DNA of 6,960 bases from NCBI GenBank assembly GCA_029256485.1, contig JAQSXU010000186.1, positions 1 to 6,960 on the forward strand, read 5' to 3'. A model generated the notes under the pieces. That model was not told the DNA's origin. It saw only the letters and a program-made list of their open reading frames with translations, and ran no database searches. Position 1 is the first letter of the stretch. Each line of letters opens with the position of its first letter. Shown here one piece after another: positions 2,858-5,557 of the stretch. A program made the translations under genes and the position numbers. This DNA is from Clostridiaceae bacterium. Its GTDB lineage: Bacteria; Bacillota_A; Clostridia; Clostridiales; Clostridiaceae.

Positions 2858-2966
2858 TTAACAAAATGTTCAAGTCCGCTTTGCATGAGAAGACTGCAAA
2901 GCACACTGCGAAGCCAAGTGCGGCCGTACTAGGCTTCTCGACATCTTGAACACGAAACATTATATG
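2858..2966. repeat. Imperfect palindromic repeat, copy A (attC-like / structured element)
   Basis: Three helices are visible. P1: TGTTCAAG (2867-2874) with CTTGAACA (2945-2952). P2: GCTTTGCA (2878-2885) with TGCAAAGC (2895-2902), 9-nt loop. P3: GAAGCC (2910-2915) with GGCTTC (2932-2937), then an A-A mismatch (2916/2931), then AGTGC (2917-2921) with GTACT (2926-2930, one wobble) closed by GGCC. Outside P1, TAAC (2859-2862) on the left and ATTATATGA (2959-2967) on the right are shared in part with the other copies. The left flank CATCAG (2852-2857) is also shared with copy B. It lies between the membrane methyltransferase and the truncated TIM-barrel gene. Confidence 0.85.
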
Positions 2967-3021
2967 AAAGGATATGCTCATGATAGTTTAGTTCCGTACA
3001 AAGCTAAATCAGTTTAGGGAT

Positions 3022-3396
3022 ATGTGCAAAAAAGCCATAGGTGATAGCAATTTAAAAATATGTATTGAAAATTGCAGCGGTTATAAGGAATTTACCATGG
3101 AAGGTATAGAACTTCTATTAGAGAGTAATATTTTTGCATTAACTCTTGATATTGGTCACAGTTATGTCGTAAATGGCATTGATGAACCATTTATAAATAA
3201 GCATGTAGACAGGCTTTATCATATGCATGCTCACGATGCAAAGAACAAACACAATCATCTTCCGCTAGGAGCAGGAGAGGTAAATATAAGTGAAAGACTT
3301 TCACTTGCAAGAGAGCATGGTTGTCGTGTAGTTCTTGAAACAAAAACGATTGTAGGGCTTAAAGAGTCAGTAGAAAGACTAAAAAATTATATATAG
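3022..3396 (+). pseudogene. C-terminal half of a sugar-phosphate isomerase/endonuclease IV-like TIM-barrel protein (5' truncated)
   Basis: Matches the second half of the AP-endonuclease-2/xylose-isomerase-like TIM barrel (sugar isomerases, epimerases, endonuclease IV relatives). Seen metal-site motifs: IEN (15-17), LDIGH (42-46), HMHAHD (68-73... ending HD), HLPLGAGEV (79-87) and LETK (105-108). Relatives are about 250-280 residues; only about 124-134 remain. The frame stays open upstream to 2992 and that segment also reads like family sequence (FRTKLNQFRD), so the ATG at 3022 is probably internal rather than a real start. It has no properly spaced Shine-Dalgarno; GGGA ends only 2 nt before it. 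The break lies within about 40 nt of the right end of repeat copy A. Half a barrel is unlikely to be active, so I call it a pseudogene. Confidence 0.75.
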
Positions 3397-3505
3397 AATC
3401 ATAAATATTTTTAAGAAGCGTAATGTATTCTACATAAAATATTTAATAAGAAATTAACTAGTAAGTGCTATCGATTTAAAAAGACAGAGAACACATTCCA
3501 TCAGA

Positions 3506-3612
3506 TAACAATTTATTCAAGTCTGCTTTGTATGAGAAGGCTGCAAGGCACACCTGCGAGCCTAAGAAAAGAGCTTTCTAAGGCTCTGGGCGTCTTGAAT
3601 AAGATACGTTAG
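3506..3612. repeat. Imperfect palindromic repeat, copy B (attC-like / structured element)
   Basis: Same architecture as copy A. P1: TTATTCAAG (3513-3521) with CTTGAATAA (3594-3602), 9 bp perfect. P2: GCTTTGTA (3525-3532) with TGCAAGGC (3542-3549), using two G-T wobbles, around a 9-nt loop. P3: GAGCCT (3558-3563) with AGGCTC (3581-3586), an A-A mismatch (3564/3580), then AGAAA (3565-3569) with TTTCT (3575-3579), loop AGAGC. TAAC (3506-3509) and GTTAG (3608-3612) form the outermost complementary pair. It sits 110 nt after the truncated TIM-barrel gene and 75 nt before the kinase gene. Confidence 0.85.
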
Positions 3613-4140: not shown

Positions 4141-4704
4141 TTGGGAGGTGTTACTATTAACGAAAATAATATACTCAATATCTTAAATGGCCAGGGGTTG
4201 CATAATTACTTTAAACAAAATCATTATAATGAGGTCGTTTTAAAACCATTACAAATGTTATTTAAAAATCAGTTTTCTCACATTATTTTATGGTTTGATG
4301 ACGACATGTTTTGTCAAATAAACCTTCTTACAATTCTTGGCTATCTCGATCAAATTAATTACAATAGAAAAATAATTTTTAATTTAATTTGCCGGCAATT
4401 TAACAAGGAACCAATGGTAATTGATAGCTTTGAAATTGAGGCAAAGGGATATAAGGAAATTTATAAACAAGTAATGATTAATAGAAGTGTTCCTGAAAAT
4501 ATCAATTTATCTGTAATGAAAAATGGAATTAACCTTTATTTTCAATATTTAAAAGATGAAAATAAAATTACAGAGTACATAAGGCAGAATGTAAATTTAA
4601 ATAGTGATATTTTATTAGCAGGGTTATTTAAAACATTTCCTCAATATGGTTTAGGGGATACGCAATATAAACAATTAATTGAAAGACATAAAAGATTATT
4701 TTAA
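4141..4704 (+). CDS. Conserved protein of unknown function, DUF1835-like
   Basis: Function unknown. The acidic block WFDDDMFCQINLLTIL (residues 51-66) and the C-terminal FPQYGLGDTQY (166-176) recall clostridial proteins related to DUF1835, whose role is not established. No signal peptide or membrane segment is seen. The start is odd: TTG at 4141 overlaps the ribosome binding site GGGAGGTG (4143-4150). No ATG, GTG or TTG lies at good spacing, so ATT at 4156 (5 nt after the site) is the best positional candidate. As remembered, relatives begin with an ING-QA-like strand and have a further block of some tens of residues before the KPLxxLFK segment. Here NHYN (27-30) joins EVVLKPL directly, suggesting a small in-frame internal loss. 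It is translationally coupled to the kinase upstream. Confidence 0.65.
   Translation: MGGVTINENNILNILNGQGLHNYFKQNHYNEVVLKPLQMLFKNQFSHIILWFDDDMFCQINLLTILGYLDQINYNRKIIFNLICRQFNKEPMVIDSFEIEAKGYKEIYKQVMINRSVPENINLSVMKNGINLYFQYLKDENKITEYIRQNVNLNSDILLAGLFKTFPQYGLGDTQYKQLIERHKRLF
4143..4150 (+). promoter_or_regulatory. Ribosome binding site that argues against the TTG start at 4141
   Basis: GGGAGGTG is a near-perfect Shine-Dalgarno just after the kinase stop codon. It lies inside the open frame starting at 4141, so translation should begin after it. ATT at 4156 is the in-frame codon at suitable spacing; AUU starts are rare but known (infC). Confidence 0.6.
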
Positions 4705-4761
4705 TTAAAACCCAATATTATAACTTTAATGACAGATATTTAAAAGTCTATAATTTAGAAA

Positions 4762-4907
4762 CAACGGATTATTCAAATTGATTTGCAGTGCTTTTGTATC
4801 GTAATTTAAATATAATGCCAATTGAATTTAAAGATATCAGGAGTAGCGTCAGCTTAAAGTGTAGTGGCACTAGGCTTCTCAGTGACTTGAATAATAAACG
4901 TTATATG
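4762..4907. repeat. Divergent third copy (C) of the palindromic repeat
   Basis: The right part matches copy A closely: ACTAGGCTTCTC (4869-4880), CTTGAA within 4886-4891, and AAACGTTATATGA (4896-4908) compared with AAACATTATATGA in A. The outer helix is retained: ATTATTCAA (4768-4776) with TTGAATAAT (4887-4895), with CAAC (4762-4765) and GTTATATG (4900-4907) beyond it. The interior is longer (about 128 nt across P1 against 86-90). P2 and the lower part of P3 are not recognisable; only AGTG/CACT with the flanking A-A survives. The rest of the 4705-5029 gap holds no gene, only an AT-rich inverted repeat (4961-4996). Confidence 0.6.
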
Positions 4908-4960
4908 ATATTTTAAATCTAAGTAAGCTTATGTTTACGCATAACATTTTTTTATTAAAG

Positions 4961-5029: not shown

Positions 5030-5483
5030 ATGGATTTGCGGCTGAAATCTAACGAGGATGAATCAAATTATGACAAATGGACATCAACCTATGTTTCTGG
5101 GTTGTTTAAAGAAATTATTCAATATTCAAGTATAAACTTGACTTGATTTATTCTGCAACAGCTTTTCATTGGATTCTAGAATAAGTTGGATATACAAAAG
5201 CTTTTGAACTTTTAAAGAGTGGTGGGGTCTTAGCCTTATTTTGGAATCATCCTTTTGTAAATCGGACTGATGATTTACTCCATTTGGAAATTCGAAAAGT
5301 CTACAACAAATTTCGACCATCTGATAAACAGCCGATTGAATTTGATAAAAGGGATTGCACAAAAATAGTAGAAATTATCAATCATTATGGATTTAAAAAT
5401 TGTTATTGAAAATTGTTCTTTCAAACTCGAACTTTTACTGCAGATGGTTATATAGCCTTATTGAATACATACTCTGAAACCAT
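5030..5483 (+). pseudogene. Class I SAM-dependent methyltransferase pseudogene
   Basis: A good start survives: ATG at 5030 with AAAAAGGAG (5013-5021) 8 nt upstream. It reads MDLRLKSNEDESNYDKW and on to EIIQYSSIN, then a stop at 5144. From 5134 a different frame continues the family sequence: KLDLIYSATAFHWI, GYTKAFELLKSGGVLALFWNH, then a segment ending NHYGFKN, then QTRTFTADGYIALLNTYSE. That second frame carries in-frame stops at 5182 and 5407. The region expected between the two parts, holding the glycine-rich SAM-binding motif I (typically EIGxGTGQAT), is absent, and the 3' end breaks off after about 5483 where relatives run on for some tens of residues. So there is an internal deletion with frameshift, two nonsense changes and a 3' truncation: clearly dead as a methyltransferase. 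Intact relatives are cytoplasmic small-molecule methyltransferases of mostly unknown substrate. Confidence 0.85.
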
Positions 5484-5557
5484 AATGTACAATCTGCCTA
5501 TATTATGAAATTGCGAACTATAGATTATATATAACATAGTGAAAGGAATATAAAGGA

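What the first reader, a model, noticed from the sequence alone, without database searches (positions are those of the whole stretch)
2858..3612. Two repeat copies share a three-way-junction fold with pairing-preserving base changes
Copies A (2867-2952) and B (3513-3602) each form P1, P2 and P3 in the same order with near-equal linkers (3 nt; 7 or 8 nt; 7 nt). Changes keep pairing. In P1, G2868-C2951 becomes A3515-T3600. In P2, T2880-A2900 and C2884-G2896 become T-G wobbles in B. P3 differs in sequence (GAAGCC/GGCTTC and AGTGC/GTACT against GAGCCT/AGGCTC and AGAAA/TTTCT), yet both keep 6 bp, an A-A mismatch, 5 bp and a 4-5 nt loop. The P2 loop TGAGAAG-R-C and the linker start ACAC are conserved in sequence. 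This is what selection on a folded nucleic acid, RNA or single-stranded DNA, looks like. I do not recognise it as a known riboswitch, ribozyme or other RNA family.
Basis: seen in the sequence. Interest (0 to 1): 0.8.

Follow-up and report, generated by a model that had tools for sequence, protein, structure and literature searches.

The report
Folded intergenic repeat in a Clostridiaceae
Short non-coding repeats of about 105 bases sit between genes of an uncultured clostridial bacterium, and two of them can fold into the same three-armed shape; they are probably an unrecorded family of small interspersed repeats, and whether the shape has a job is still open.

Summary
Copies A (2859-2962) and B (3506-3611) each fold alone into P1-P2-P3 at the stated coordinates, and all 27 pairs are kept despite 15 stem changes. 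In an AT-rich window they are the two most GC-rich 88-nt peaks and the two most stable 110-nt peaks on either strand. C keeps an outer helix and the tip of P3, but P2 is not recognisable and the lower half of P3 is broken, so the full junction is seen in two copies only. No Rfam family matches. Searches of genomes, viral contigs, plasmids and phages gave only chance matches, with strict patterns. Best reading: a small interspersed, probably non-autonomous mobile repeat, MITE/bcr-like, with imperfect TA-ended inverted repeats, read out as a structured stretch of mRNA. A dedicated RNA, an attC-like site, and stems maintained by template switching remain possible; so few copies cannot separate selection from template switching. 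The attC reading fails on extra-helical bases and the recalled core consensus. A lead, not yet exceptional.

The parts
2859..2962 (+). Copy A of the repeat, TA-to-TA, 104 bp; the block shared with B starts at 2852 (CATCAG)
2867..2874 (+). A, P1 5' arm (pairs with 2945-2952)
2878..2902 (+). A, P2 hairpin, 8 bp, 9-nt loop TGAGAAGAC
2910..2937 (+). A, P3 hairpin, 6 bp, A-A mismatch, 5 bp, 4-nt loop
2945..2952 (+). A, P1 3' arm
3506..3611 (+). Copy B of the repeat, TA-to-TA, 106 bp; 82 of 110 aligned columns identical to A
3514..3521 (+). B, P1 5' arm (pairs with 3594-3601; extendable to 3512/3603)
3525..3549 (+). B, P2 hairpin, 8 bp with two T-G wobbles, loop TGAGAAGGC
3558..3586 (+). B, P3 hairpin, 6 bp, A-A mismatch, 5 bp, 5-nt loop
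3594..3601 (+). B, P1 3' arm
4759..4903 (+). Copy C, decayed, about 145 bp; right half homologous to A and B; left end placed by eye from the P1 arm and AAAC, so uncertain
   Evidence: nhmmer 4850-4910 E 7.7e-6; repeats D1/D2; CM hit 4826-4907 E 0.0093, which places the left P1 arm elsewhere with 3 non-pairs
4768..4776 (+). C, proposed P1 5' arm, pairs with 4887-4895 over 9 bp
4858..4871 (+). C, tip of P3: 5 of 5 pairs kept, with two one-sided pairing-preserving changes against A
4887..4895 (+). C, P1 3' arm

Best explanation
A, B and C are copies of one small, non-coding interspersed repeat (104, 106 and about 145 bp). Shown: imperfect terminal inverted repeats (TAACA...TTCAAG / CTTGAA...AC-RTTA), intergenic position, same strand as the neighbouring genes, and in A and B a GC-rich interior predicted to fold as RNA into a three-way junction. 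Inferred: copies spread non-autonomously, in the manner of MITEs and Bacillus cereus bcr repeats, with a transposase or recombinase encoded elsewhere acting on the ends. Inferred: the element is then transcribed by read-through as part of UTRs or intergenic mRNA, where its stable fold can shield or expose neighbouring sequence to nucleases. The ends and the outer helix are what all copies keep; the interior drifts once a copy is dead, as in C.
For: Three homologous copies within 2.05 kb, all intergenic. The ends are alike in all three while C's interior is not. 5 of 6 ends carry TA. No frame with a start codon common to A and B (by eye). No match to 4227 Rfam families at E up to 5 apart from one snoRNA match at E 2.7 outside the copies. 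Size, terminal inverted repeats and TA ends match the description of bacterial MITEs in PMC2229807 (passages seen). 40-51% of bcr copies were part of mRNAs in two B. cereus strains (PMC3446304, passages seen). The surroundings carry decayed genes: a truncated CbiR-like TIM barrel just after A and a broken methyltransferase after C (by eye), as in a plastic region.
Against: No target-site duplication beyond TA. A and B share CATCAG one base outside the left TA, and A and C share TATGA directly outside the right TA, which sharp transposon boundaries do not predict. The repeat is GC-rich, whereas most MITEs are described as A+T-rich. All three copies lie in one direction (1 in 4 by chance). C's left end is uncertain: the covariance model places it differently. 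No empty site, no copy beyond this window and no partner transposase could be shown; none of the eight window proteins scanned against Pfam looks like a transposase.
Confidence: 0.45

Rival explanations
1. A dedicated structured RNA: a cis-acting leader or small RNA, present in several paralogous copies, whose three-way junction is kept by selection and whose P2 loop TGAGAAGRC and ACAC linker are the conserved functional letters.
For: All 27 pairs kept through 15 changes between A and B. A and B are GC-rich islands in AT-rich intergenic DNA, a signature used to find new bacterial RNAs (PMC6429828, passages seen). The + strand RNA is more stable than the - strand RNA in 3 of 3 copies, and in B the - strand fold shrinks P2 to 4 pairs. 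The tip of P3 keeps 5 of 5 pairs in C with two changes.
Against: In C, P2 is not recognisable and the lower part of P3 keeps 2 of 6 pairs. The following genes are unrelated: a CbiR-like fragment, an AAA kinase, a methyltransferase remnant (by eye). A and B share most P2 letters, so P2 is barely tested. By z-score B's two strands are equal, and A's strands differ by 0.9 kcal/mol only. No relative found outside the window, though these searches were weak.
Confidence: 0.22
2. An attC-like recombination site: the repeats close gene cassettes in a decayed integron-like array, recognised as folded single-stranded DNA (outer TAAC/GTTA box, unpaired spacer, P1 as inner box, P2 and P3 as the variable terminal structure).
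For: Same orientation, 0.65 and 1.29 kb spacing, short accessory genes between copies. AAC...GTT ends in B and C. Lengths 104 to about 145 close to the 57-141 bp reported for attC (PMC5371416, passages seen).
Against: P1 has no extra-helical base in any of the three copies. A has ATT, not GTT. None of the copies carries RYYYAAC or GTTRRRY (+ strand scan; consensus recalled). DNA folding energies do not clearly favour the bottom strand (A -19.9 against -18.8; B equal; C -11.2 against -11.3). 5 of the window's 8 gene junctions carry no recognised copy, one of them only 3 nt wide. The gaps from stop codon to repeat are 127, 109 and about 54 nt, long for cassettes (recalled). IntegronFinder 2.0 reports one complete integron in Firmicutes and a few CALIN (PMC9024848, passages seen).
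Confidence: 0.1
3. A neutral duplicated inverted-repeat sequence: the copies arose by duplication, and hairpin arms stay complementary because replication template switching copies one arm onto the other, without any function of the fold.
For: The P3 differences are clustered and, in a gapped alignment, include indels in both arms, the kind of multibase change template switching can produce (PMC8794818, outline with abstract seen). Only two well-kept copies.
Against: Template switching does not by itself explain the conserved unpaired loop TGAGAAGRC and ACAC linker, or the separate G-C to A-T exchange in P1 across an interior of about 70 nt. The former is also expected from recent duplication, however.
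Confidence: 0.18

Closest known systems
bcr1-bcr18 repeats of the Bacillus cereus group
   Same: Small (100-400 bp) intergenic repeats in Bacillota; bcr1-3 are MITE-like; bcr10 and bcr18 have conserved secondary structure and are transcribed in 5' UTRs (PMC6542083 and PMC3446304, passages seen)
   Different: bcr mobility is tied to a TTTAT motif, not seen at these ends; bcr sequences were not at hand, so no sequence comparison was made; different host family
RUP and other bacterial MITEs (Correia/NEMIS, RPE, RU-3)
   Same: About 100-200 bp, terminal inverted repeats, TA ends, stable RNA fold (PMC2229807, passages seen)
   Different: Here the interior of A and B branches into two hairpins instead of one long stem-loop, is GC-rich, and no target duplication beyond TA or partner IS630-type element was seen in the window
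attC sites of chromosomal integrons
   Same: AAC...GTT ends in two of three copies, unpaired spacer outside an inner box, 104 to about 145 bp, same direction between accessory genes
   Different: No extra-helical bases, recalled consensus boxes absent, GTT lost in A, 5 of 8 gene junctions without a recognised copy, no integrase among the eight window proteins scanned
Three-way-junction riboswitches such as the purine class (recalled)
   Same: P1-P2-P3 order around a junction
   Different: Linker and loop lengths differ (recalled comparison); no Rfam match in the copies

Membership tests
MITE / small non-autonomous repeat (PMC2229807) | Under 200 bp, encodes no protein | tested here: met
   104, 106 and about 145 bp; a - strand frame over A exists, but a search with it had 1 candidate and none at E 10
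MITE / small non-autonomous repeat (PMC2229807) | Terminal inverted repeats | tested here: met
   TAACA..TTCAAG against TAA(C/T)GT..TTCAAG, imperfect, in A and B; C has AAAC..ATTATTCAA against TAAC..ATTATTCAA
MITE / small non-autonomous repeat (PMC2229807) | TA at both ends | tested here: inconclusive
   5 of 6 ends; C's left end reads AA and its place is uncertain
MITE / small non-autonomous repeat (PMC2229807) | Target-site duplication | tested here: inconclusive
   Nothing beyond TA in the 10-nt flanks, by eye; no empty site available
MITE / small non-autonomous repeat (PMC2229807) | A+T-rich (said of most) | tested here: not met
   A core 51%, B core 46% GC against 30% for the window; C 33%
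MITE / small non-autonomous repeat (PMC2229807) | Many dispersed copies and a partner transposase | not testable with these tools
   No whole genome held for the window
attC site | Conserved AAC/GTT triplets at the ends | tested here: inconclusive
   B and C yes, A has AAC/ATT
attC site | Extra-helical bases in the inner stem | tested here: not met
   P1 unbroken over 8, 10 (one wobble) and 9 bp in A, B and C
attC site | RYYYAAC / GTTRRRY core boxes (recalled consensus) | tested here: not met
   None of the 3 + strand RYYYAAC and 4 + strand GTTRRRY matches in the window falls in a copy
attC site | Integron integrase in the genome | not testable with these tools
   Only the window is available; none among the eight window proteins scanned
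Known Rfam RNA family | Match to a covariance model | tested here: not met
   4227 families, E up to 5: one match, snoRNA at 5061-5148, E 2.7, outside the copies
New structured RNA family | Significant covariation over many homologs | tested here: inconclusive
   Only A, B and decayed C available
New structured RNA family | Transcript | not testable with these tools
   No RNA-seq

The most novel reading that the evidence does not exclude
The repeat is the first seen member of a new structured nucleic acid family in Clostridiaceae: either a multi-copy three-way-junction RNA with a conserved TGAGAAGRC loop, or a folded-DNA recombination site closing gene cassettes in a phylum where integrons are very rare. 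In both cases the fold itself would be under selection.
Probability: 0.25. Interest if true: 0.65.

Novelty: new member of a known kind. Interest (0 to 1): 0.35.

Why it matters
Small structured repeats are a source of new regulatory RNA parts and of genome rearrangement, and I know of none described for this branch of the Clostridiaceae (recalled; the listings showed none, searches found no paper, and one search did not test the point because no listed paper held the genus name). If the fold proves to be selected, this gives a defined junction with a testable loop. If not, it is a natural case for asking whether template switching alone can keep hairpins paired.

Tried and rejected
Known RNA: cmscan with E up to 5 gave no match in the copies; no tRNA or tmRNA. 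Small protein: a search with 63 of the 64 residues of the - strand frame over A had 1 candidate and none at E 10; the + frame shared by A and B lacks a start codon in B (read by eye). Intrinsic terminator: no T-run follows P3 on the + strand; of the 6 terminator-like matches (2.0 expected) the one in a copy is on the - strand inside B's P3. Promoter matches (38) are fewer than the shuffled mean (44.3), so nothing was read from them.

Relatives: exact patterns in viral contigs gave 0 and 1 (L004, inside a 226-aa open frame: chance). The single genome-contig scan gave 1 (L001, Pontiellaceae), where by eye neither P2 arms nor P1 are present: chance. blastn of the A-B region in plasmids and phages: none at 1e-5; A and B alone against plasmids at E 10: three matches of 25-32 bases, E 0.3 to 3, chance. 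tblastn of two window proteins against plasmids gave only relatives under 60% identity. These absences are weak evidence: the patterns held 17 to 23 fixed letters, and copies 75% alike would often miss one.

A P2-loop/P3-strand pseudoknot (GAGAAG 2887 with CTTCTC 2934) fits A but not B or C. Further decayed copies: none convincing; the next covariance-model hits are a - strand hit overlapping copy A (E 0.13) and 18 more at E 2.3 or worse. Literature searches on clostridial MITEs, integrons, bcr repeats, template switching and structured RNAs: in the listings I saw, nothing specific to this repeat. Papers were seen as passages or outline only, none as a whole text.

Full report
What was checked. 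The window (6960 bases, 30% GC) carries eight + strand genes or gene pieces that I scanned: UDPGP, GNAT, PEMT methyltransferase, a CbiR-like TIM-barrel fragment, an AAA kinase, a protein without a family, a second GNAT and a TIGR00027 methyltransferase, and by eye a methyltransferase remnant at about 5031-5520. Among the 120 listed of 7983 UDPGP relatives the nearest with an organism name are a Clostridiaceae MAG (80%) and Oceanirhabdus sp. W0125-5 (78%); an unnamed one reaches 89%. The window's own proteins are listed on a 25,855-base contig. No whole genome is held for the window, which limited all further tests.

Copies A and B contain P1, P2 and P3 at the coordinates given, with linkers of 3, 7 or 8, and 7 nt. 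Each copy, folded alone as + strand RNA, gives the same junction. Between the copies 15 stem letters differ, and all 27 canonical pairs stay canonical: six pairs change on both sides and three on one side. If the same numbers of changes are thrown at random on A's stems, all pairs survive in 1803 of 200,000 trials for P1 and P2 together, in 27 of 200,000 for P3, and in none of 200,000 for all three. The P3 figure is flattering: its register was taken from the structure, while a gapped alignment reads the same difference as fewer substitutions plus indels in both arms.

A and B also stand out physically. They are the two highest-GC 88-nt peaks in the window (52% and 49%), in gaps whose remaining 359 nt are 27% GC. 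In a scan of 1371 windows of 110 nt they are the two most stable peaks on each strand. As RNA the + strand is the more stable strand in A, B and C (-33.8, -33.8, -32.3 against -32.9, -29.9, -23.3 kcal/mol); as DNA the strands are about equal. Against shuffles, however, B's two strands are equally unusual (z -2.68 and -2.75). This leans only slightly to RNA of the + strand.

There is a third copy. A profile of A and B finds 4850-4910 with E 7.7e-6, and the repeat finder shows the same. Going outward, C can form a 9-bp P1 (4768-4776 with 4887-4895). Its left arm would arise by chance within 182 nt in 0.55% of first-order random sequences, and the same 9-mer occurs once more in the window, at 5114. 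It has AAAC and GTTA at its ends. The tip of P3 keeps 5 of 5 pairs, with two one-sided changes against A; the lower part of P3 keeps 2 of 6 pairs, both wobbles. I could not recognise P2 in an interior some 40 nt longer, and C folded alone gives P1 with a different interior (z -2.42, 3 of 200). A covariance model of A and B scores C at E 0.0093 but places the left P1 arm near 4837-4845 with three non-pairs and P2 deleted, so C's left end is not settled; the model finds no further convincing copy. So the ends and an outer helix are common to all copies, and the complete junction is common to two.

What it is. No Rfam family matches in the copies. The ends form imperfect terminal inverted repeats beginning TAAC in A and B, with TA at 5 of 6 ends. 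Size, ends, non-coding nature and stable fold fit the description of small non-autonomous bacterial repeats (PMC2229807, passages). They also fit the bcr repeats of Bacillus cereus, of which 40-51% were part of mRNAs in two strains and some are thought to be RNA elements (PMC3446304, passages; PMC6542083, passages). I therefore place it, with confidence 0.45, as a MITE/bcr-like interspersed repeat; membership in either is not established. Against this stand the shared letters outside the TA ends (CATCAG in A and B, TATGA in A and C), the lack of a longer target duplication, the single orientation and the GC-rich interior.

Rivals. A dedicated RNA (0.22) explains the kept pairs and the conserved loop, but not the decay of C or the unrelated neighbours. 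Neutral maintenance by template switching (0.18) is a real alternative, because that process can produce multibase compensatory changes (PMC8794818, outline with abstract). An attC-like site (0.10) was considered because of the direction, spacing, ends and accessory genes. It fails on extra-helical bases (P1 unbroken in all three) and on the recalled core boxes, A lacks GTT, and 5 of 8 gene junctions have no recognised copy. Integrons are very rare in Firmicutes (PMC9024848, passages).

Search for relatives. Five pattern scans of viral contigs, one of genome contigs, four blastn searches of plasmids and phages and a protein-level search with the frame over A gave nothing or chance matches. The patterns demanded 17 to 23 fixed letters, so diverged copies would be missed. 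Metagenome contigs could not be scanned. I do not claim that the family is confined to this organism.

Verdict. Its interpretation as selection on a folded nucleic acid is plausible but not established. Interest 0.35.

Noticed in passing
   Followed up: yes
1953-2040: Terminator-like hairpin CGTCACAAAC/GTTTGTGGCG followed by TTTTT, overlapped by a longer alternative pairing CCGTCACAA/TTGTGACGG, and by eye a second T-tailed hairpin just after; looks like tandem terminators with an alternative fold.
   Followed up: no
3022-3396: CbiR-like/xylose-isomerase-like TIM barrel that appears to lack its N-terminal half (Pfam match starts at profile position 115 of 249), beginning about 60 bases after copy A.
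   Followed up: partly
5031-5520: Remnant of a class I methyltransferase gene, broken by stops and an apparent internal loss (read by eye, no family search made).
   Followed up: no
67-1326: UDPGP-type protein appears shortened at its N-terminus: the window's own database entry has 397 aa against about 450 aa in its nearest relatives.
   Followed up: no
2887-2892 and 2934-2939: In copy A the P2 loop GAGAAG is perfectly complementary to CTTCTC at the 3' side of P3; copy B lacks CTTCTC and copy C lacks GAGAAG.
   Followed up: partly
4141-4704: Protein without a Pfam family; its closest relatives, many of about 220 aa, are mostly unnamed, a few labelled AraC family transcriptional regulator (120 of 178 listed); the window copy is about 30 aa shorter than those.
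   Followed up: no
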